This document shows, in pieces, positions 27,032-64,000 of a DNA stretch of 64,000 nt. The position numbers and the translations under genes were made by a program. Numbering within the stretch: position 1 is the stretch's first letter; each line of letters opens with the position of its first letter. This DNA is from Coralliovum pocilloporae (GTDB taxonomy: Bacteria; Pseudomonadota; Alphaproteobacteria; Rhizobiales; Cohaesibacteraceae), in assembly GCF_030845175.1 (NCBI RefSeq), contig NZ_CP132542.1, forward strand, positions 2,577,501 through 2,641,500. Reading direction: 5' to 3'. The notes beneath the pieces were generated by a model. That model searched no databases and was not told the DNA's origin. It saw only the letters and a list, made by a program, of their open reading frames with translations.

Positions 27032-27105
27032 AGTGTACGTCATGTCGCTTGCAATCTCCCGCCCGGGTGCCCAAGATGGGGGCCGGGTTGGGGGAGTAAG
27101 CATCC

Positions 27106-30100
27106 ATGGATGATGGTTTAGGCCAGGAGTTGGAAAAGCGGCTGAGCGGGCTGGATGAAGACCAGCTCAGGGTGCTGGCAACCCGCATGTCCCTCCGCTG
27201 TATCCCCCTGCTGCATCGTTTGTGGCAAGTGGCGAATGATAAGGATGCGGCCAATCTGGCACTGCTTCACTTCAGATGTGCCCTGCTTGCCTGGGTGAGG
27301 GCAACCTTCCCGCTTCCTGAAATGGCTTTTGAAGAACTGGCGAGAACAGCCTATCAGGACGCCTGGCAGCTTGATCAGGACGTGGGCGTGGAGCTGTCTC
27401 TCGATGCAGATAATCCGGTCCGGTCCACATCAAGAGCGCTCTACATTCTCAGAACACCCCTACGCCTGAATTTCAGGAGTGATAATGAGCCACCTGCAAG
27501 CGGTATCGAGATTATAAAATGGATTTCCGGTGTCATTGCGTCCTATGACAACAGCCTGAATCACTCCACCGAAATTTTCGGGTCCGATCTTGGGCGACTC
27601 GAAAATGCCATGTTGCCCCACGAATTGGCCAAAGAACCTTTGTGGTCGTCACAAGTATTGTTCCCATTGTCAATCGATAGGGAGAAACTGTCAGAATATC
27701 TGTTCTCCAATGGTGGACATTGGAATATTTGGCTAGAATGGTTCAGCCGCCGATTGAGTGGTGTGTTTGTTGATCCATTGGCAGAGGTAAGTCTGGCCTT
27801 CATACCGAACAAATATTGGGATGAGGGGCCAGTAACCACCAATCAGGTTTTGAGAGATTTTTGGCAGAATTCTATAGATACTCCCTTCGACCCCAAAGCC
27901 CTGGAAAGCTACGCCCCGGGTATCAGTGAGATTCTGGGAGAGGTCGCGAACCGTCTTTCTGAGGATGAACCTGAGCGAAAGGCCTCACCGTCGTCTGCGG
28001 GCACCACCACACCGCCACCCTCAGACCCCAACGAAGCAGCGGCGGACACCTCTCCACCCATAACTGATGACGTCCAAACAGAAACAGATCATGTCTGGCT
28101 CTGCAAATATGCGCCAAATGAGGACGGTCTGACCGGCTTCGAGGGCCGTGCTGAGCCCGGACATTTAGAACCCTGGCCGCGCGGCAATTATGGGACGGGC
28201 AGGTTTCAGCCCGGGCAGCGGGTTTTCTTCTGGCGCAATATGGGCAACCGCGATCTGGGCAGTGGCGTCACGGCCACAGGCGAAGTTGTCGGATTTGATG
28301 AAACTGACGATCAGGTCAGGATAAAGGTGGTCGAAGCCTTCCCGGAGGATGCTGTTCAGCGGGATGATGTGCTCGCCGCCATTACCAAAACCGGTTCAAA
28401 CTGGCCCTATCAGGGCACCATGCGGGCCTTGACGCCGCAGGAAGTGTCAGCCATCGACCGGCTTCTCAAAGAACGAAACCCTCAGAAAGAGAAAGACGAG
28501 ACCGAGGCCGATGATACCTCGGTGGTCCAAGAGGACCCGCCCGAGCGGGAAAACCGTTTTGACGCGGATTATGTGCCGGATGCGCCCGAGAAACTGAATG
28601 ATCATCTGGGCCGCGCTCCTCTGGCCCTCACACTGGCCTACAGGCTCAACAGGATCATTGATGAACAGGGCGGGCAAAGGCCTGCCCGGACGCCCGCAAA
28701 CGGTAGAGTTGATGCTGCCTCATGGACAGGGGTTACGGAGGGACCTCGGGATCCGGATCAGGACGAGAACGGTTTTGTCGCCCATATTGATTCCCCCTGG
28801 GGCGGGGGCAAGTCCACCTTTGCCAATCATCTCTGCCGTATTCTGAGCCCCGGTCGCTACGGACTTGATCCATTCGCTGACAAACAAGAGACTGAGAGAG
28901 AAAGGGCAAAGAGACTAGGTTTTCTGGCTGACCTCGACCTTGCGAATGAGGAGCGCTGGCCGGAGAACTATCGTCGTCCGTGGTTCATCGCGCATTACAA
29001 TATCTGGCGACACGAGACGGTCGACCCGCCCTGGTGGAATTTCTATGAAGTTATCCGGAAGCAGGTCTTCACTGCGGTCAGGCACGAAGAGGCACGCGGC
29101 GACCGGGCAGAACGGCTGGGGCGCTGGCTGGACCTCTGGGCAAGGGAATATATCTGGCGTCTGTTCACTCCGCAAACCAGAATACTGGTGCTGGCGGCAC
29201 TCCTGTCCTTCACGCTCTATGCCCTGTTTTTCGGGCTCGGGCTCGATAGCCTTCTCGGCATTGAGGATGCGGCCCTGACTAAGGGAGTGAAAGGCGTGCT
29301 CGGCATTGCCGGTTCCACAGCCGGTCTCCTGGCGCTGACGCGACCCTTGTCCAATGCGTTGATGACAAGCCTGCTGTCATCCCGGGATGCCAAGGTCTTC
29401 GGCATCAAAGATCCGTTTGAGAGCTTCAGGCGCCACTATGCGGATATGATGGCGCGGCTGGGCGCACCGGTTCTGGTGGTGATTGATGATGTGGACCGCT
29501 GTCAAAACAAGAGTGTGACAGACCTGCTGATCGGCCTGATGACCATCTTCAAATCTTCCAATGTGGTCTATCTGCTGCTCGGGGACCGGTCATGGATCGA
29601 AAAGGCCTGCGAAAAACTCCATACCAATATGCGGCGAGATGGCGAGACACATTCCGAATTCGCCCGTCGCTATGCGGAAAAGGCTATTCAGATGTCTATC
29701 CTTTTGCCCGCAATCAGCGAGGATACGCGCAAGAGCTATATTGACCGGCTGCTTGTCTCTGATGCCGCGGTGGGAGACGGTGACAAGGTTGCGCTTCTTA
29801 TCCAGCCCCATGACCTTGACGACGGACCAGCCCCTACAACAGAGACGGCAGACGAACCGCAGCCCGTCGAGAACGCTCCCGCCCAGAAGAAACGTGAACC
29901 GGTTGCCCGGTCTGTTCTGCAGGAAGGGGTGAAAACGGTTCTTGAGCAGGGGGCGGGCAACAGCAAGGAACGATTGCGGCAATATCTTCGCGCCCGGCAG
30001 GTCAGTGAGGCGGATATCTCCGCCAGCAAGGCCCGGATTGCTGAGACAGTGGCCATCGCCTCGGCCACATCTGATGAGGCGGACCGTCAGATCCGGTTTG

Positions 30101-30558
30101 CCCTGTCGGATTTCTCAACCCTGTTGCCGGATAACCCGCGCCGTATCAAGCTCATCATCAATATGATGGCCACCTATCAGAACAGTGCTCTGCAGGCACT
30201 GGATGCGTTCGATCTGGGCGGGGAGCGCTGGCAGCAATTGCTGGCCTTTGTGATCCTGAGCACAGAGCGGGCATGGATCTGGGAACGTCTTTTGAGGGAT
30301 GAAGCCTTGTCAGGTCGCCTTCTGCCCCTGGTTGGCAAGCCGGAGGCAGACTGGCAGAAACTGGCACAATCAGACGAAGAAGGTGGCTCCAGCCTGGATC
30401 GTGATGTCTGTAAAATCCTGTCTGATGATCTCGCGCACGGGCTGCTGTTCACCGGCTGGAAGCAGAAAGAGGGCGGCACTGCCACCCCCATCCGGCTGAC
30501 CCAGGACGCCCTGGCTGATTTCCGTATCCTCATGCCGCTCACGAAACGGCAGGGGTAA
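27106..30558 (+). CDS. Large KAP-family P-loop NTPase with EVE/PUA-like insert; candidate defence protein
   Basis: 1150 residues. Residues 1-290 are an unassigned, mainly helical region with a Trp-rich piece (HWNIWLEWFSRRLSG). A Pro/Ser-rich linker leads to about 328-455, which resembles an EVE/PUA-like domain (DHVWLCKYAPNEDG, RFQPGQRVFFWR, TGEVVGFDE, NWPYQGTMRALT); EVE domains read modified bases. The KAP NTPase follows: Walker A DSPWGGGKST (about 562-571), the NIWRHETVDPPWWNF element (about 630), two membrane helices (about 690-712 and 729-750), and Walker B VLVVIDDVDRC (about 789). A C-terminal regulatory part ends the protein. Membrane helices inserted between Walker A and B are typical of KAP proteins, some of which act in phage exclusion. 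ATG 27106 has GGGAG upstream. The EVE call is by eye; the defence role is inference. Confidence 0.85.
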   Translation: MDDGLGQELEKRLSGLDEDQLRVLATRMSLRCIPLLHRLWQVANDKDAANLALLHFRCALLAWVRATFPLPEMAFEELARTAYQDAWQLDQDVGVELSLDADNPVRSTSRALYILRTPLRLNFRSDNEPPASGIEIIKWISGVIASYDNSLNHSTEIFGSDLGRLENAMLPHELAKEPLWSSQVLFPLSIDREKLSEYLFSNGGHWNIWLEWFSRRLSGVFVDPLAEVSLAFIPNKYWDEGPVTTNQVLRDFWQNSIDTPFDPKALESYAPGISEILGEVANRLSEDEPERKASPSSAGTTTPPPSDPNEAAADTSPPITDDVQTETDHVWLCKYAPNEDGLTGFEGRAEPGHLEPWPRGNYGTGRFQPGQRVFFWRNMGNRDLGSGVTATGEVVGFDETDDQVRIKVVEAFPEDAVQRDDVLAAITKTGSNWPYQGTMRALTPQEVSAIDRLLKERNPQKEKDETEADDTSVVQEDPPERENRFDADYVPDAPEKLNDHLGRAPLALTLAYRLNRIIDEQGGQRPARTPANGRVDAASWTGVTEGPRDPDQDENGFVAHIDSPWGGGKSTFANHLCRILSPGRYGLDPFADKQETERERAKRLGFLADLDLANEERWPENYRRPWFIAHYNIWRHETVDPPWWNFYEVIRKQVFTAVRHEEARGDRAERLGRWLDLWAREYIWRLFTPQTRILVLAALLSFTLYALFFGLGLDSLLGIEDAALTKGVKGVLGIAGSTAGLLALTRPLSNALMTSLLSSRDAKVFGIKDPFESFRRHYADMMARLGAPVLVVIDDVDRCQNKSVTDLLIGLMTIFKSSNVVYLLLGDRSWIEKACEKLHTNMRRDGETHSEFARRYAEKAIQMSILLPAISEDTRKSYIDRLLVSDAAVGDGDKVALLIQPHDLDDGPAPTTETADEPQPVENAPAQKKREPVARSVLQEGVKTVLEQGAGNSKERLRQYLRARQVSEADISASKARIAETVAIASATSDEADRQIRFALSDFSTLLPDNPRRIKLIINMMATYQNSALQALDAFDLGGERWQQLLAFVILSTERAWIWERLLRDEALSGRLLPLVGKPEADWQKLAQSDEEGGSSLDRDVCKILSDDLAHGLLFTGWKQKEGGTATPIRLTQDALADFRILMPLTKRQG

Positions 30559-57997: not shown

Positions 57998-58459
57998 ATG
58001 GCAAACAAGGCGGATACGCCATGGTCGCGTATCAAGGCCCTGTATGAGGGGCAAAGGATGAGCGTTGCAGCGCTCAGCCGTCAATTTGGCGTGTCTCAAT
58101 CCGCCATCCACAGACGCAAGAAACAGGAGCACTGGACATGGCAGCAGCCTTCCGAGGGAAAAGAGCAGGGCGTTCTTGCTGAAAGCGGTGCTGAACTGCC
58201 CGGTCGGACAGCCCTCGTGGCCCGGTTGCGACGGGTGTTCGACAAGCAGGTCTCGGAAGTTGAGGCCCGTCTTGGCAGGCTGGGCCAGACCTCTCTGGAT
58301 GAAAAGGACGCCCGTACCCTGTCAACGCTGGTGCGAACCGCAGAAAAACTGATGGACCTGGAAGAGCAGGATTCAGGCGACATGGACAAAGATGAGGAGG
58401 TAAGCCTTGAAACGCTCCGCGAGGACCTTGCGCGACGCCTTGGTTGCTTTGTCCGATGA
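57998..58459 (+). CDS. GTA small terminase-like protein (gene 1 position)
   Basis: 153 residues. An N-terminal helix-turn-helix (MSVAALSRQFGVSQSAIHRR) is followed by a helical, acidic C-terminal part (VSEVEARLGRLGQTSLDEKD, RTAEKLMDLEEQDSGDMDKD). The position directly before the large terminase and the HTH-plus-coil layout fit a small terminase subunit, which recognises DNA and recruits the motor; gene 1 of the Rhodobacter GTA has this role. ATG 57998 follows the leader terminator. Its 3' end overlaps the large terminase gene by 53 bp. Confidence 0.75.
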   Translation: MANKADTPWSRIKALYEGQRMSVAALSRQFGVSQSAIHRRKKQEHWTWQQPSEGKEQGVLAESGAELPGRTALVARLRRVFDKQVSEVEARLGRLGQTSLDEKDARTLSTLVRTAEKLMDLEEQDSGDMDKDEEVSLETLREDLARRLGCFVR

Positions 58460-59741
58460 GGCCTCAGCCGTTTCTTTTCTGGCATCGTGTTCGGCTGCAG
58501 AAATCCGGGCGCTGGCCTTTGACTGGGAAGTCTGGGCCAGGGAAGACCAGTTACCGCCTACAGGAAATTGGACCACCTGGATGATACTGGGCGGGCGCGG
58601 TGCCGGAAAAACCCGCGCTGGTGCTGAATGGGTGCGCGGCATGGCCCTGGGCAAACCGCCCTTCGCGTCCGAGCCTGCCAGTCGTATCGCGCTGATTGGT
58701 GAAACCATTGCTGATGTGCGTGAGGTGATGATTGAGGGGGTCTCGGGGCTTTTATCAATCCATCCTCGGTCTGAACGGCCGGACTGGCTGCCATCACGCA
58801 GGCGGCTGACCTGGCCCAATGGCAGTATTGCGCAAGTCTTCTCAGCGGAAGACCCCGAAGGGTTGCGCGGGCCGCAATTCCATGCCGCTTGGGCGGATGA
58901 GCTGGCCAAGTGGCGCTATGCGGAGGAAACATGGGACATGCTTCAGTTCGGTCTGCGGCTTGGGCGTCAGCCCCGGCAGATTGTCACCACAACGCCGCGA
59001 CCCATCCCGCTTCTGAAGCGGCTTATGGACGAGCCAGGCACCGTGCTGAGCAGAGCGGCCACCCGCGCCAATGCGGCCAATCTGGCACCGGGTTTTCTCG
59101 ACCGGATTGTCGGACGATATGCCGATACCCGGCTGGGGCGGCAGGAGCTGGATGGCGAACTGATTGAGGACAGGCAGGATGCACTCTGGCACCGGCAGCA
59201 AATGGATGTGTTGCGGGTATCGTCTGCACCCGAGCTCACACGGATTGTCGTGGCTGTCGACCCGCCAGCCTCAAGCACAAAGAGGGCTGATGCATGCGGT
59301 ATCATCGTAGCCGGTATCTGTGCCAATGGCGTGGCGTATGTCCTGAAGGACAGCACGCTGCGCGAGGTGCGGCCGACCGAATGGGCCAGTAAGGCCGCCG
59401 GGCTGATGCGCCGGTACGAGGCCGATGCGCTTGTGGTCGAGGTCAACCAGGGCGGAGAGATGGTCGAGACCGTTATCCGCGAGGTTGACCCGTTGATACC
59501 GGTCAAGCCGGTTCGGGCCACGCGGGGCAAGTGGGTGCGGGCAGAGCCGGTTGCAGCGCTCTATGAGCAGGGGCGGGTCCGTCATGTGGGTGGGTTTGCA
59601 GACCTTGAGGATGAAATGTGTGATTTCGGCCTCAATGGCCTGTCGTCCGGCAAAAGCCCTGACCGGATGGATGCTCTGGTTTGGGCACTGACTGCCTTGA
59701 TGCTTGGCCCACAGGCCACCCCGCAAGTGCGGTCGCTTTGA
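58407..59741 (+). CDS. GTA/phage large terminase subunit
   Basis: 444 residues. ATPase domain with Walker A WMILGGRGAGKTRAGAEW (about residues 58-75), Walker B and coupling region FHAAWADELAKWRYAEETWD, and TTTPRPIPLLKRLM. The nuclease domain has VAVDPPAS and the later acidic residues in ALVVEVNQGGEM and KSPDRMDALVWAL. The start is a TTG at 58407, supported by GAGGAGG 6 bp upstream; this gives a 53-bp overlap with the preceding gene. The motor packages DNA into heads; in GTAs it packages random host DNA. Confidence 0.93.
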   Translation: MKRSARTLRDALVALSDEASAVSFLASCSAAEIRALAFDWEVWAREDQLPPTGNWTTWMILGGRGAGKTRAGAEWVRGMALGKPPFASEPASRIALIGETIADVREVMIEGVSGLLSIHPRSERPDWLPSRRRLTWPNGSIAQVFSAEDPEGLRGPQFHAAWADELAKWRYAEETWDMLQFGLRLGRQPRQIVTTTPRPIPLLKRLMDEPGTVLSRAATRANAANLAPGFLDRIVGRYADTRLGRQELDGELIEDRQDALWHRQQMDVLRVSSAPELTRIVVAVDPPASSTKRADACGIIVAGICANGVAYVLKDSTLREVRPTEWASKAAGLMRRYEADALVVEVNQGGEMVETVIREVDPLIPVKPVRATRGKWVRAEPVAALYEQGRVRHVGGFADLEDEMCDFGLNGLSSGKSPDRMDALVWALTALMLGPQATPQVRSL

Positions 59742-59787
59742 TGCGTGGCATCTGAATAACCTTTGAACAGAACAGAATGAGGACACT

Positions 59788-61014
59788 ATGTTTGGCTGGC
59801 TCCGCAGGGAACCGGTACGGTCCGCCGTGCCTGTAGAACGGGAAGAAAAGGCGAGCCGAACCGGCGGCCTGATTGCATTTCAGCATCAGGGGCAGCCGGT
59901 CTGGACGCCAAGGGATTATGGTGCACTGGCGCGCGAGGGTTACACGAAAAACCCCATCGTTTACCGCTGTGTCCGGATGATTGCCGAAGCTGCCGCTTCC
60001 GTGCCCTGGATACTCTATCAGGGGCGGGACGAGTTGGACGAGCACCCGATTCTGACCCTGCTTGACGGGCCGAATGAGCGGCAGGGCGGTGCAGAGTTTC
60101 TCGAGGAACTCTACGGCCACGTACTGGTGGCTGGTAATGCCTATGCAGAGGCGCTTGCGGTGACCGATGGCATCGGTGAATTGCATGTTCTGAGGCCGGA
60201 CAGGATGAAAGTGGTTCCGGGGCGCGACGGCTGGCCTGACGCCTATGATTATACGGTGTCTGGCCGAACGGTCCGGTTCCGCGCGGAGGAAGGCGGGTTG
60301 GTCCGACCAATCCTGCATCTGACCCTCTTTCATCCGCTCAACGACCATTACGGTTTTGCCCCGCTTGAAGCCGCTCAAACCAGCCTTGATGTGCACAATG
60401 CAGCCGGTGTCTGGAACAAGGCCCTGCTGGATAACTCGGCCAGACCATCCGGCGCGCTGGTCTATGCGGCCCGCGAAGGCGGGAATTTGACAGACGAGCA
60501 GTTCGAGCGCCTGAAAGCCGAGTTGGAAGACGGCTTCTCAGGTTCCGGAAATGCCGGGCGGCCTTTACTGCTCGAGGGTGGGCTTGACTGGAAAGCCATG
60601 GCGCTAAGCCCGCGCGACATGGATTTTCTTGAAGCCAAGAATGGAGCCGCCCGGGATATCGCGCTTGCCTTCGGTGTCCCGCCCATGCTGCTGGGCATTC
60701 CCGGAGACAACACTTTCGCCAACTATCAGGAGGCCAACCGGGCATTCTGGCGACAGACTATTCTGCCCCTTGTGGGGCGGACGGCCAAGGCTCTCACGAC
60801 CTGGCTGGCGCCTGCCTACGGCGGGCGTCTCAGGCTCTGGTATGACGCCGACCAGATTGACGCGCTGTCGTCCGAACGGGAGGCCTTATGGCAACGGGTC
60901 AATGATGCGAGCTTCCTGTCTGACAGCGAAAAGCGGGAGGCGGTTGGTTACAGCCCGGAGCGGTCGGACGACCCGGTTTCCGGCTCGGGCTTTACCCCGA
61001 TGGACTCCATGTGA
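59788..61014 (+). CDS. HK97-family portal protein (GTA gene 3 position)
   Basis: 408 residues. KNPIVYRCVRMIAEAAASVP, LHVLRPDRMKVVPGRDGWPD, NDHYGFAPLEAAQTSLDVHN and FGVPPMLLGIPGDNTFANYQ are typical of HK97-type portals. It forms the dodecameric ring through which DNA enters the head. ATG 59788 has GAGGAC just upstream. The stop overlaps the next gene by 4 bp. Confidence 0.94.
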   Translation: MFGWLRREPVRSAVPVEREEKASRTGGLIAFQHQGQPVWTPRDYGALAREGYTKNPIVYRCVRMIAEAAASVPWILYQGRDELDEHPILTLLDGPNERQGGAEFLEELYGHVLVAGNAYAEALAVTDGIGELHVLRPDRMKVVPGRDGWPDAYDYTVSGRTVRFRAEEGGLVRPILHLTLFHPLNDHYGFAPLEAAQTSLDVHNAAGVWNKALLDNSARPSGALVYAAREGGNLTDEQFERLKAELEDGFSGSGNAGRPLLLEGGLDWKAMALSPRDMDFLEAKNGAARDIALAFGVPPMLLGIPGDNTFANYQEANRAFWRQTILPLVGRTAKALTTWLAPAYGGRLRLWYDADQIDALSSEREALWQRVNDASFLSDSEKREAVGYSPERSDDPVSGSGFTPMDSM

Positions 61015-61199
61015 CCGAGCTTGCAACTCCCTTTGCCGAACGTGGAGACCTAGCGCATCTGGCGCTGTTTCTCTGGGCCTCGGGTGCCAGCACTCTGCTT
61101 GTCTGGTCCTTGCGTGAACTGGTGGCGTTGAATCGACGTTTTAACGACTTCGTCAATGAGATTGCCCGCCTGAATCAACAGTTTAACATTCGGAACTGA
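61011..61199 (+). CDS. Small GTA membrane-type protein (gene 3.5 position)
   Basis: 62 residues, GTG start overlapping the portal stop (GTGA). A hydrophobic stretch LALFLWASGASTLLVWSL is followed by a short charged helix (NRRFNDFVNEIARLNQQFN). Small open frames at this point are found in other GTA clusters, with no known function. The tight coupling supports that it is translated. Confidence 0.65.
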   Translation: MTELATPFAERGDLAHLALFLWASGASTLLVWSLRELVALNRRFNDFVNEIARLNQQFNIRN

Positions 61200-61201
61200 A
61201 G

Positions 61202-61366
61202 ATGAAGACCTTCAATCAACTGATTCAAATGACTCATGTTTTCGCGACTTTTAAAGCGCCACTTCCACCCCATTCCGAAGTGTTTCATGAATTCGCTGAA
61301 GGGCTGTCTCGTGTTCTGCATCAACGGAATGCAGAGCTGCGCATCCGTACTGTGACGGGAGGATAA
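61202..61366 (+). CDS. 54-residue hypothetical protein in GTA cluster
   Basis: ATG 61202, two bases after the preceding stop codon, ends 3 bp before the protease gene. It begins MKTFNQLIQMTHVFATFKAP and contains EVFHEFAEGLSRVLHQRN. Codon use is richer in A and T than the neighbours. There is no homology that could be recognised. It might be only a spacer; the exact tiling between two genes argues for a real gene. Confidence 0.5.
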   Translation: MKTFNQLIQMTHVFATFKAPLPPHSEVFHEFAEGLSRVLHQRNAELRIRTVTGG

Positions 61367-61369
61367 GCC

Positions 61370-62080
61370 ATGGCTGATATCAGTGGTGCACCCGCAATTG
61401 AATGGCACGCAGCCCTTGACCGGGAGGTCAAGTTCTCTGTTGCCGACCTGACCTCGGTCGAGGCTGACGGGTGTTTTTCAGGCTATGCCAGCCTGTTCGG
61501 CAAAACGGACCTCGGGCGCGACATGGTGATGCCCGGAGCCTTTGCCAACTCGCTGGCCCGGCGCGGGACCAGGGGCGTCAAGATGCTCTACCAGCACGAC
61601 CCGTCAGAGCCCATTGGCCAATGGCTTGAGCTGAAGGAAAACAGTCGCGGGCTGTTCGTCCGGGGCCGGTTGATGCCGGATGTTGCCCGCTCACGGGATG
61701 TGCTCAGCCTGATGCGGGAAGGGGTGCTCGACGGCCTCTCAATCGGTTTCAGAACAGTGCGCGGCAAGACCGATGCAAAGAGCCGTATCAGACGGCTCTA
61801 TGAGGTCGACCTCTGGGAGATTTCAGTGGTCACCTTTCCGATGTTGCCGGATGCCCGCATCAGCGCGGTCAAGTCCGGCGGGGCACCAGGGCAAAGGCCG
61901 ACACTCAGAGAATTCGAACGCTGGCTCACGCGGGATGCAGGGTTCAGCCGTTCCGATGCCCGGACGATTATCCGCTCCGGGTTCACCAGCCTCAAGGGCA
62001 TGCAGGACGCTGCCGGGGACAAGGGGCTTGCCCGACGCATGCGGCAGGCCGCCCACCATTTTCGTACAGCAAGGACCTGA
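61370..62080 (+). CDS. HK97-family prohead protease (GTA gene 4 position)
   Basis: 236 residues. It starts MADISGAPAIEWHAALDREV and the protease core reads FSGYASLFGKTDLGRDMVMP, with the catalytic His in MLYQHDPSEPIGQW and Ser in VLDGLSIGFRTV; the LYEVDLWEISVVTFPM motif carries the third catalytic residue. It cleaves capsid N-terminal scaffold segments during head maturation. A C-terminal stretch of about 60 residues (RPTLREFERWLTRDAGFSRS) is typical of GTA versions. ATG 61370 has GGGAGGA upstream. Confidence 0.93.
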   Translation: MADISGAPAIEWHAALDREVKFSVADLTSVEADGCFSGYASLFGKTDLGRDMVMPGAFANSLARRGTRGVKMLYQHDPSEPIGQWLELKENSRGLFVRGRLMPDVARSRDVLSLMREGVLDGLSIGFRTVRGKTDAKSRIRRLYEVDLWEISVVTFPMLPDARISAVKSGGAPGQRPTLREFERWLTRDAGFSRSDARTIIRSGFTSLKGMQDAAGDKGLARRMRQAAHHFRTART

Positions 62081-62081
62081 C

Positions 62082-63362
62082 ATGACAGACCAGACCTATC
62101 CGACCCGGCTTGAGACGCCGGTCCCGCTTGAAACAAAGAGCGGCCATTCGGCATCAGACCTCACCGATGCCTTCGATGAGTTCATGACCTCGTTTGAAGC
62201 GTTCAAGGATGCCAATGACGAACGGCTTCAGGCGCTTGAAACCCGGATGACATCCGACCCGCTCACTGATGAGAAAGTCAATCGCATCAATACCGCGCTT
62301 GATGAGCAGAAGCGCGCCATGGACCATCTGATTCTGAAAGCCGGACGTCCGGCCAGGGCAGGCGGTGACCGTCCATGGTCTCCGGCTCTGGCCGAACACA
62401 AAACCGCCTTTGAGCGCTATGTGCGTTCCGGTTCCGAACAGGGGCTTCATCAGCTTGAGGAAAAAGCCCTCTCGGCCGGCTCAGACCCTGATGGCGGATA
62501 TCTTGTCCCTGATGAGGTGGAGACGGAAATCGGCCGCAGGTTGACGACCCTGTCGCCCATTCGTGCGATTTCATCTGTCCGTCAGGTGTCGTCGTCGGTT
62601 TACAAGAAACCCTTCGCCACCACAGGTCCGGCAACCGGATGGGTCGCCGAGACGGCGGTCCGCCCGCAAACAGCGACACCAACCCTGGCTGAGCTGCAGT
62701 TTCCGGTCATGGAGCTTTATGCCATGCCGGCGGCCACCTCCACATTGCTGGATGACAGCGCGGTCAATATCGACCAGTGGATTGCCGATGAAGTGCAGAT
62801 TGCCTTTGCGGAACAGGAAGGCGAGGCCTTTGTCAAAGGCGATGGTGTCAACAAGCCGCGCGGTTTCCTCGACTATACGACGGTGGATGAATCCGGCTGG
62901 AGTTGGGGGAATATCGGCACCATCGCCACGGGCGCGGATGGTGATTTCGCCTCATCCAGCCCGTCAGATGTGCTGATTGATACAATCTACGCCCTCAAGG
63001 CGGGATACAGGCAGAATGGCAACTGGGTGATGAATCGCTCGACCCAGGCTGCTGTCCGCAAGCTCAAGGATGCTGACGGCAATTATCTCTGGCAGCCACC
63101 GGCGCAGGCGGGTGGTCAGGCCAGCCTGATGAATTTCCCGCTTGTCGAGGCTGAAGACATGCCGGATATCGCATCAGACGCAACAGCCATTGCCTTTGGT
63201 GATTTCCGTCGCGGCTATCTCATCATCGACCGCCTGGGTGTCCGCATTCTGCGCGATCCCTATTCCAGCAAGCCCTACGTGCTGTTCTACACCACCAAGC
63301 GTGTGGGCGGCGGTGTGCAGGACTTCGATGCCATCAAGCTGGTGAAATTCGGAACATCCTGA
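62082..63362 (+). CDS. HK97-family major capsid protein (GTA gene 5 position)
   Basis: 426 residues. A helical scaffold-like N-terminal region (about 20-110: SDLTDAFDEFMTSFEAFKDA, LTDEKVNRINTALDEQKRAM) is likely removed by the protease. The capsid fold starts around SAGSDPDGGYLVPDEVE, with FAEQEGEAFVKGDGVNKPRG and GDFRRGYLIIDRLGVRILRD. Length fits GTA capsids. ATG 62082 is used, 1 bp after the protease stop; the frame is open back to 61773 but that part overlaps the protease gene in another frame. A strong terminator follows. Confidence 0.94.
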   Translation: MTDQTYPTRLETPVPLETKSGHSASDLTDAFDEFMTSFEAFKDANDERLQALETRMTSDPLTDEKVNRINTALDEQKRAMDHLILKAGRPARAGGDRPWSPALAEHKTAFERYVRSGSEQGLHQLEEKALSAGSDPDGGYLVPDEVETEIGRRLTTLSPIRAISSVRQVSSSVYKKPFATTGPATGWVAETAVRPQTATPTLAELQFPVMELYAMPAATSTLLDDSAVNIDQWIADEVQIAFAEQEGEAFVKGDGVNKPRGFLDYTTVDESGWSWGNIGTIATGADGDFASSSPSDVLIDTIYALKAGYRQNGNWVMNRSTQAAVRKLKDADGNYLWQPPAQAGGQASLMNFPLVEAEDMPDIASDATAIAFGDFRRGYLIIDRLGVRILRDPYSSKPYVLFYTTKRVGGGVQDFDAIKLVKFGTS

Positions 63363-63398
63363 CCCGCGCTTTTCTCCATCCTCCCTGAAGCCCAACTT

Positions 63399-63430
63399 GA
63401 CGGCCTCGCTTTTGCGGGGCCGTCTTTTTT
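63399..63430 (+). terminator. Intrinsic terminator between capsid and connector genes
   Basis: GACGGCCTCGC (63399-63409) pairs with GCGGGGCCGTC (63414-63424) around TTTT, one G-U pair, followed by six T. It sits inside the GTA cluster directly before the ribosome site of the next gene. Confidence 0.9.
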
Positions 63431-63439
63431 GGAGGACAT

Positions 63440-64000
63440 ATGACCCGCCTTCTTGTAACTCCCCCGGCTCTTGAGCCGGTGTCTCTGGCTGATCTCAAGG
63501 CACATGCCAGGGTGGAAACCGATGCGGATGACACTCTCATCGGAACCTATGTCATCGCCAGCCGCATGCATGTGGAAGCGTCAAGCCAGCTCGCCATGGT
63601 CAATCAGACATGGCGGTTCTATCGGGATGCCTGGCCGGAAGAGGGGCCCCTTGAACTTGCCATCAGGCCGGTTCAGTCGGTCCTGTCCATCACGGTCTAT
63701 GATGAAGCAGGCAACCCCACTCTTCTGGATGCTGATGACTATCGGGTCGATCTGGTGTCGAACCCGATCCGGATCTATCCGGTCAATGCCAGAGCCCGCG
63801 CTATCGGACAGCAGATGAACGGCCTAGAAATAGAAGTGGTGGCCGGATATGGGCCCACATCCATTGATGTGCCCAAGGTCCTGCGCCTGGCGATCCTGCA
63901 GCTCGCGGCCTTCTGGTACGACAATCGGGCATCGCTGGTTGGCGATTCCATCAGCCTGCCAATCCCCGACATGATTGAGCCGCTTGTGGCCCCGTTTCGT
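63440..64000 (+). CDS. Head-tail connector protein, 3'-truncated by window end (GTA gene 6 position)
   Basis: The first 187 residues; the gene continues beyond the window. It starts MTRLLVTPPALEPVSLADLK and has VETDADDTLIGTYVIASR, LAIRPVQSVLSITVYDEAGN and LRLAILQLAAFWYDNRASL, the pattern of phage gp6-type connector proteins used by GTAs. GGAGGACAT precedes the ATG, just after the terminator stem, so read-through is needed to express it unless it has its own promoter. Confidence 0.9.
   Translation, partial: MTRLLVTPPALEPVSLADLKAHARVETDADDTLIGTYVIASRMHVEASSQLAMVNQTWRFYRDAWPEEGPLELAIRPVQSVLSITVYDEAGNPTLLDADDYRVDLVSNPIRIYPVNARARAIGQQMNGLEIEVVAGYGPTSIDVPKVLRLAILQLAAFWYDNRASLVGDSISLPIPDMIEPLVAPFR

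What the first reader, a model, noticed from the sequence alone, without database searches (positions are those of the whole stretch)
27106..30558. EVE/PUA-like domain fused to a membrane KAP NTPase
The 1150-residue protein combines an unassigned Trp-rich N-terminal region, a segment at about 328-455 that looks like an EVE/PUA-type reader of modified bases, and a KAP P-loop NTPase with membrane helices between its Walker motifs. KAP proteins are known in phage exclusion and in the Qat system, and EVE domains guide modification-dependent restriction. A single chain that could sense modified or foreign nucleic acid and switch a membrane-bound ATPase would be a compact, apparently undescribed defence design. 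It sits alone between LysE and msrB.
Basis: partly seen in the sequence, partly recalled or inferred. Interest (0 to 1): 0.75.

Follow-up and report, generated by a model that had tools for sequence, protein, structure and literature searches.

The report
EVE reader fused to KAP ATPase
A single bacterial protein joins a domain of the kind that reads chemically modified bases in DNA or RNA to a membrane-associated ATPase of a family used in antiviral defence; the same pairing recurs in other bacteria with swapped front ends, which fits a sensor-and-switch for foreign nucleic acid that nobody has yet tested.

Summary
The 1150-aa ORF at 27106-30558 is real, and both domain calls hold. Residues ~328-455 are an EVE domain. 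The window's own sequence is sub-threshold, but 9 of 16 homologous domains hit Pfam EVE (two over cut-off as excised domains). The AlphaFold model (pLDDT 86) has EVE-family structures as its first ten neighbours (Z 10.5-12.2), THYN1 among them. Residues ~554-1060 are a KAP NTPase with one clear and one weak hydrophobic segment between the Walker motifs. The N-terminal 290 aa are an unnamed, mainly alphaproteobacterial helical module. Its only close structural neighbours are DUF416, which sequence tests do not support; it is also fused to TIR and to other KAP proteins. The EVE-KAP pair recurs behind interchangeable N-termini: this module, TIR-like, PG_binding_1, macro-like, or none. The KAP tree needs several gains or losses of EVE. 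The gene is sporadic, absent from all 19 sampled family relatives, and sits at the edge of a conserved msrB-mrp block. It lies in no defence island, and most homologues do not either. Most likely it is a one-gene sensor-switch against modified or foreign nucleic acid. Architecture is well supported; ligand, membrane topology and defence function are inferred. New variant of a known kind.

The parts
27090..27096 (+). SD-like GGGGGAG upstream of the ATG
   Evidence: sequence printed
27106..30558 (+). three-part protein, 1150 aa (Nt module - EVE - KAP NTPase)
   Evidence: homologues with the same order
27106..27990 (+). N-terminal helical module (residues ~1-295), DUF416-like fold, alphaproteobacterial mobile module also fused to TIR and other KAP proteins
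   Evidence: alignment of 34 homologues; AF2 pLDDT 80.8; structural neighbours 2q9r Z 12.7 and 3f7c Z 11.0; fusions
28087..28470 (+). EVE domain (residues ~328-455), Trp357 = conserved EVE pocket Trp
   Evidence: Pfam EVE in 9 of 16 homologues; over cut-off in L037 and L050; AF2 pLDDT 85.7; EVE structures are the top neighbours; alignment
28765..30285 (+). KAP P-loop NTPase (residues ~554-1060)
   Evidence: PF07693 E=1.2e-16 (residues 554-887); homologous region to ~1060
28792..28818 (+). Walker A SPWGGGKST (563-571)
   Evidence: PWGGGK invariant in the 6-sequence alignment
29182..29238 (+). clear hydrophobic segment, residues 693-711, possible TM helix 1
   Evidence: Kyte-Doolittle 2.42
29284..29340 (+). 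weak hydrophobic segment, residues 727-745, possible TM helix 2
   Evidence: Kyte-Doolittle 1.34
29476..29502 (+). Walker B VVIDDVDRC (791-799)

Best explanation
This is a single-gene sensor-switch against invading nucleic acid. The EVE domain binds a modified or otherwise unusual base in DNA or RNA (inferred from the family). Binding changes the nucleotide state or oligomerisation of the adjacent KAP NTPase, which is probably anchored at the inner membrane through the hydrophobic insert between Walker A and B (inferred). The active KAP assembly then stops the infection, by acting at the membrane or by regrouping the N-terminal helical modules (inferred). The N-terminal slot is interchangeable among relatives (this module, TIR-like, PG_binding_1, macro-like; caspase-like in a relative without EVE), so the EVE-KAP pair looks like the sensing and switching core and the N-terminus like an exchangeable effector or adaptor. 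Shown: the domains, their order, their recurrence, the exchange of modules and the sporadic distribution. Not shown: ligand, topology, ATPase activity, defence.
For: EVE identity by sequence in homologues and by structure, including the EVE-HNH modification-dependent nuclease VcaM4I at Z 9.7. KAP identity, with partial PADLOC matches to QatA and PifA. EVE and KAP_NTPase both pass Pfam cut-offs in one chain in L153, and in L156, which also carries PG_binding_1 and lies outside the order and class of the window. Exchangeable N-termini: TIR-like in L036 (E 6e-4, below cut-off), caspase-like in L054 (NF047832 E 5e-8, below its cut-off), macro-like in L058/L049 (related to each other; Pfam Macro only E 0.18). 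The same Nt module is fused to TIR_2 (E 1e-29). Nt and EVE labels change several times on the KAP tree: Nt+EVE 5 changes, EVE-only 5. Sporadic presence: full-length only in the own genome; a long EVE-KAP match in one of 60 other relatives. Published KAP precedents: QatA binds DNA and oligomerises (PMC13279940); Tmn is a KAP defence NTPase whose phage escape mutations fall in the DNA-modification gene nmad5 (PMC11846954).
Against: No defence island around the gene, and few defence genes near homologues. Five neighbour ORFs are prfC/RF3, mostly in Roseibium, so in that lineage the gene looks stably inherited. The GC content equals that of the window (0.566 vs 0.563), so there is no mark of recent transfer. 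Only Trp357 of the two classical EVE pocket aromatics aligns, and the VRN motif is missing. Only one hydrophobic segment is convincing. Deleting nmad5 did not free phage from Tmn (PMC11846954), so the Tmn parallel is loose. No phage data.
Confidence: 0.56

Rival explanations
1. Defence protein in which the EVE domain is not a modified-base reader but a general nucleic-acid or protein docking domain; the KAP part or the N-terminal module senses the phage, for instance a phage protein.
For: Second pocket aromatic and VRN motif not conserved; many close KAP relatives work without EVE; KAP systems Qat and Tmn have no EVE in their descriptions.
Against: Trp357 is invariant in 16 homologues; EVE is retained in the same position behind very different N-termini; the fold is clearly EVE.
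Confidence: 0.25
2. A cellular regulator, not defence: EVE senses modified RNA or a small modified nucleobase and the KAP ATPase adjusts a membrane process or stress response.
For: Classical alphaproteobacterial EVE proteins are linked to heme and cytochrome c genes (PMC7641849), and this genome has a classical EVE protein as well; no defence island; stable prfC-adjacent place in Roseibium.
Against: Very sporadic presence; N-terminal exchange with TIR, caspase-like and PG_binding domains is typical of conflict systems; plasmid-borne relatives in Rhizobium.
Confidence: 0.15
3. Decayed or chance fusion without function.
For: Window EVE and KAP score lower than those of homologues; long end branch in the KAP tree.
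Against: Intact 1150-aa frame, Walker A and B intact, same order in nine other fetched loci.
Confidence: 0.02

Closest known systems
QatA of the Qat (qatABCD) system
   Same: KAP NTPase; best named match (NCBIfam E 3e-14, residues 767-952); QatA binds DNA and oligomerises (PMC13279940)
   Different: 52.6 bits against an equivalog cut-off of 600; no QatB, QatC or QatD genes recognised beside it; extra Nt and EVE domains
TmnA / Tmn defence system
   Same: single KAP NTPase with two unusual transmembrane segments; escape mutations in phage DNA-modification gene nmad5 (PMC11846954)
   Different: no Tmn model among the PADLOC matches; no EVE described in Tmn in that paper
EVE-HNH modification-dependent endonucleases (VcaM4I)
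   Same: EVE reader coupled to another domain in one chain; EVE fold match Z 9.7
   Different: partner is KAP NTPase, not HNH nuclease; VcaM4I pocket P24/W82/Y130 (PMC7897488) not shown to be conserved here
McrB-type fusions of YTH/DCD readers to NTPases (type IV restriction)
   Same: modified-base reader of the PUA superfamily fused to a P-loop NTPase (PMC7641849)
   Different: KAP clade with hydrophobic insert instead of McrB GTPase; no McrC nuclease seen next to it
Modular conflict NTPases with exchangeable adaptors/effectors, in which KAP can replace STAND (PMC8195603)
   Same: interchangeable N-terminal TIR, caspase-like, PG_binding or adaptor-like domains on a KAP NTPase
   Different: EVE as central domain; no multi-copy adaptor network in this genome (one Nt copy)
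DUF416 (PF04222, YjaG)
   Same: only close structural neighbours of the N-terminal module, Z 12.7 and 11.0
   Different: profile comparison and hmmsearch no better than shuffled sequences; about 100 extra C-terminal residues

Membership tests
EVE domain (PF01878) | match to the Pfam model over the gathering score | tested here: inconclusive
   window sequence itself no hit; homologous domains of the same position: L050 24.3 and L037 23.4 bits vs 23 as excised domains, 9 of 16 with a match; L153 29.2 and L156 23.6 bits in EVE-KAP proteins
EVE domain (PF01878) | EVE/PUA fold | tested here: met
   model pLDDT 85.7; the first ten VIA-align rows are EVE-family/DUF55 structures, Z 10.5-12.2 (2ar1, 1wmm, 2eve, 2g2x, THYN1 and others), ASCH and YTH lower
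EVE domain (PF01878) | aromatic pocket for a modified base | tested here: inconclusive
   Trp357 aligns with the Trp of WDGVRN (taken as 2eve W26 of PMC7897488, by own numbering); second aromatic and VRN not conserved
KAP NTPase (PF07693) | P-loop with Walker A and B and family profile | tested here: met
   61.2 bits vs cut-off 20, E 1.2e-16; motifs at 563-571 and 791-799
KAP NTPase (PF07693) | transmembrane segments inserted between Walker A and B | tested here: inconclusive
   one clear (693-711) and one weak (727-745) hydrophobic segment by Kyte-Doolittle
Qat system | QatA equivalog score | tested here: not met
   52.6 bits vs 600
Qat system | qatB, qatC, qatD in the operon | tested here: inconclusive
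   neighbours are LysE-type and msrB-mrp genes by inspection, BLAST and tblastn to relatives; no dedicated QatBCD profile scan was run
Modification-dependent restriction enzyme | nuclease domain in the chain | tested here: not met
   no nuclease family in the Pfam scan of the chain; an unrecognised nuclease fold is not excluded
DUF416 (N-terminal module) | sequence-profile similarity | tested here: inconclusive
   fold neighbours 2q9r Z 12.7, 3f7c Z 11.0, next 4.8, but hhalign and hmmsearch find nothing
Anti-phage defence system | protection against phage | not testable with these tools
   needs plaque assays
Anti-phage defence system | location in defence islands | tested here: not met
   window neighbourhood looks like housekeeping genes; 120 neighbour ORFs of homologues show mainly single PADLOC hits (GajB, DRT, CARF, MTase); no matched background was run

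The most novel reading that the evidence does not exclude
EVE-KAP proteins are a new class of single-chain innate immune receptors in bacteria: a modified-base reader directly gates a membrane-anchored KAP ATPase, with a plug-in N-terminal effector slot (TIR-like, PG_binding, macro-like, and the unnamed helical module described here), making KAP a prokaryotic counterpart to STAND receptors that senses nucleic-acid modification.
Probability: 0.3. Interest if true: 0.82.

Novelty: new variant of a known kind. Interest (0 to 1): 0.58.

Why it matters
Many phages hide behind modified bases. A one-gene receptor that reads such bases and switches a membrane ATPase would be a compact answer to that, and would give the poorly understood KAP defence proteins (Qat, Tmn) a testable trigger. 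The exchangeable N-terminal slot also exposes an unnamed module shared with TIR proteins, which offers a handle on a wider set of alphaproteobacterial conflict proteins.

Tried and rejected
Single-sequence search of genome contigs gave 5 pattern matches but no relatives; the alignment-based search worked. Viral contigs gave none; among phages there was only one weak KAP-part match, in a Vibrio phage. PDB profile search for the EVE part gave only short chance GroES matches and for the N-terminus nothing credible; the structural comparison was needed. hhalign against six classical EVE proteins was weak (probability 11%, E 0.0028, full-length collinear), probably because that set is shallow. DUF416 homology of the N-terminus was considered because an ungapped match of helices 1-2 looked attractive by eye; not accepted as proof because hhalign and hmmsearch found nothing above shuffles. 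Filing under Qat was rejected (score far below the equivalog cut-off, partners not recognised). Recent horizontal transfer judged from GC: no signal. A homotypic adaptor network (as with EADs) was considered for Nt but the genome has a single copy. Defence-island enrichment was looked for among 120 neighbour ORFs and is not convincing.

Full report
What is there. The ORF at 27106-30558 (+) encodes 1150 aa without interruption, with an SD-like GGGGGAG nine bases before the ATG. Its GC (0.566) matches the window (0.563). It lies between a LysE-type gene (a BLAST match of that stretch falls on an annotated 'LysE family translocator') and msrB, followed by the mrp antiporter operon (gene names by inspection).

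KAP part. Pfam KAP_NTPase matches residues 554-887 at E=1.2e-16, well above its cut-off. The best named relative is QatA (NCBIfam E=3e-14, but 52.6 bits against an equivalog cut-off of 600); PADLOC also gives PifA. Walker A is 563-571 and Walker B 791-799. Between them one hydrophobic segment is clear (693-711) and a second is weak (727-745). Membrane attachment is therefore likely but not shown.

EVE part. Alone, residues 318-465 have no Pfam EVE hit. Homologous segments do: of 16 aligned domains (alignment A2), nine match Pfam EVE, best E 2.4e-5, and L050 and L037 exceed the curated cut-off as excised domains. AlphaFold2 on the 15-row alignment gives pLDDT 85.7 and strands and helices in the order expected of the PUA/EVE fold. 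In the VIA-align second look the first ten rows are EVE or DUF55 proteins: 2ar1 Z 12.2 (rmsd 3.1, 126 aligned), 1wmm, 2eve, 2g2x, 2gbs, 2hd9, 2p5d, human THYN1 5j3e and 3eop, 1zce (family assignment of those entries partly from established knowledge). The EVE-HNH nuclease VcaM4I follows at Z 9.7, with ASCH and YTH domains at similar or lower Z. The invariant Trp357 aligns with the Trp of the classical WDGVRN motif, but the VRN residues and the second pocket aromatic are not conserved. The domain family is settled; the ligand is not.

N-terminal part. Residues 1-295 have no Pfam family. A profile of 34 homologues finds the module in 44 of 397 genomes of the order but only 10 of 299 across the phylum, 8 of those 10 in the same class. 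The model (pLDDT 80.8, all helical) has two close structural neighbours, both DUF416 proteins (2q9r Z 12.7, rmsd 3.5, 166 aligned; 3f7c Z 11.0, rmsd 3.4, 146 aligned); the third row drops to Z 4.8. For helical proteins Z near 13 can be a common arrangement, and hhalign and hmmsearch against DUF416 sequences found nothing better than shuffles. DUF416-like is therefore a structural resemblance only. The same module precedes KAP without EVE, a TIR domain (L018, TIR_2 E 1.1e-29), and several unassigned C-termini.

Recurrence and exchange. An alignment-based scan returned 28 loci, all named as members of the Alphaproteobacteria. The full three-part order is found in L037, L039, L040, L042, L044, L045, L046, L047 and L050 (Roseibium/Labrenzia, Roseovarius, Aestuariivirgaceae), and broken in L062. 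EVE-KAP without the module occurs on a Rhizobium leguminosarum plasmid and in several MAGs. In other relatives the N-terminal slot holds a TIR-like domain (L036, E 6e-4, below cut-off), a macro-like domain (L058; L049 without EVE; E 1e-13 to each other in a two-sequence comparison; Pfam Macro only E 0.18) or, without EVE, a caspase-like domain (L054, NF047832 E 5e-8, below its cut-off of 140 bits). L153 carries EVE and KAP both over Pfam cut-offs; L156, from outside the window's class, carries PG_binding_1, EVE (23.6 vs 23) and KAP. On a tree of 31 KAP domains the labels change repeatedly; one supported clade of three holds an EVE-only, an Nt-only and an Nt+EVE protein. The window protein has a long end branch, so its exact place is unsure.

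Distribution and setting. The full-length protein occurs in none of the 60 other genomes of the relatives sample (a long EVE-KAP match in one) and the EVE subfamily in 4 of 308 genomes of the class, the own one included. msrB-mrp linkage is kept in all 18 family relatives in which a locus around msrB was fetched, without the KAP gene; in four relatives read over 14 kb the window's genes upstream of the KAP gene are also missing from that place, so the gene lies at a synteny breakpoint. This is against a conserved housekeeping role. But neighbours of homologues are mostly ordinary: PADLOC matches among 120 ORFs are mainly single ones (GajB, DRT, CARF, methyltransferase), and five ORFs are RF3/prfC, mostly in Roseibium. 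A defence-island argument cannot be made.

Mechanism. I propose that EVE reads a modified or foreign nucleic acid, that this is passed to the directly following KAP NTPase, and that the KAP assembly, probably at the membrane, triggers an effect through its own action or through the N-terminal slot. Precedents from the literature: QatA binds DNA and forms heptamers or octamers (PMC13279940); Tmn is a KAP defence NTPase whose phage escape mutations hit the modification gene nmad5, although deletion of nmad5 did not free the phage (PMC11846954); VcaM4I shows EVE flipping 5mC/5hmC into a pocket (PMC7897488); KAP can replace STAND NTPases in conflict systems (PMC8195603). All functional steps here are inference.

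Known or new. The EVE census paper does not mention KAP (PMC7641849) and a full-text search for EVE with KAP and antiphage found no description of this pairing; most subscription papers and most preprints are not in that library. I rate it as a new variant of a known kind: known domains in an apparently undescribed recurring combination, with an unnamed N-terminal module.

Noticed in passing
window 57998-63815: ORFs at the right end look like phage DNA-packaging genes (small-terminase-like, terminase-like with P-loop, portal-like), possibly a prophage or gene transfer agent; judged by eye from the start of the translations only.
   Followed up: no
L018, L019, L034, L093: The same N-terminal helical module precedes a TIR or related C-terminus in proteins of other genomes; the module has no Pfam family and deserves its own census.
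   Followed up: partly
L031, L089, L090, L094, L096, L097, L099, L100: Largest non-KAP cluster (8 proteins) of C-termini behind the N-terminal module; no Pfam family apart from a faint AbiEi_4 match in two scanned members.
   Followed up: partly
L008:2015-4580 versus L007:7836-10409: Near-identical EVE-KAP gene on two Rhizobium leguminosarum plasmids: intact in strain Vaf-108, split into two ORFs in Vaf10, each near a RelA/SpoT-domain gene.
   Followed up: no
L062:7596-9500: Breoghania copy is broken within the EVE region into separate frames.
   Followed up: no
L153:1-1269: Gene directly upstream of an EVE-KAP protein looks like a patatin-type phospholipase (read by eye), a common defence effector.
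   Followed up: no
L152:1363-3414: Another EVE-KAP protein with a long acidic linker, preceded by a pentapeptide-repeat-like protein.
   Followed up: no
G000:C1:1380516-1380914 (L114): The genome also has a classical stand-alone EVE protein, present in nearly all sampled relatives.
   Followed up: partly
L039, L040, L046, L050 and related Roseibium loci: The three-part gene lies near prfC (RF3) in several Roseibium/Labrenzia genomes, either stable inheritance or an integration hotspot (assignment to single loci by ORF length only).
   Followed up: partly
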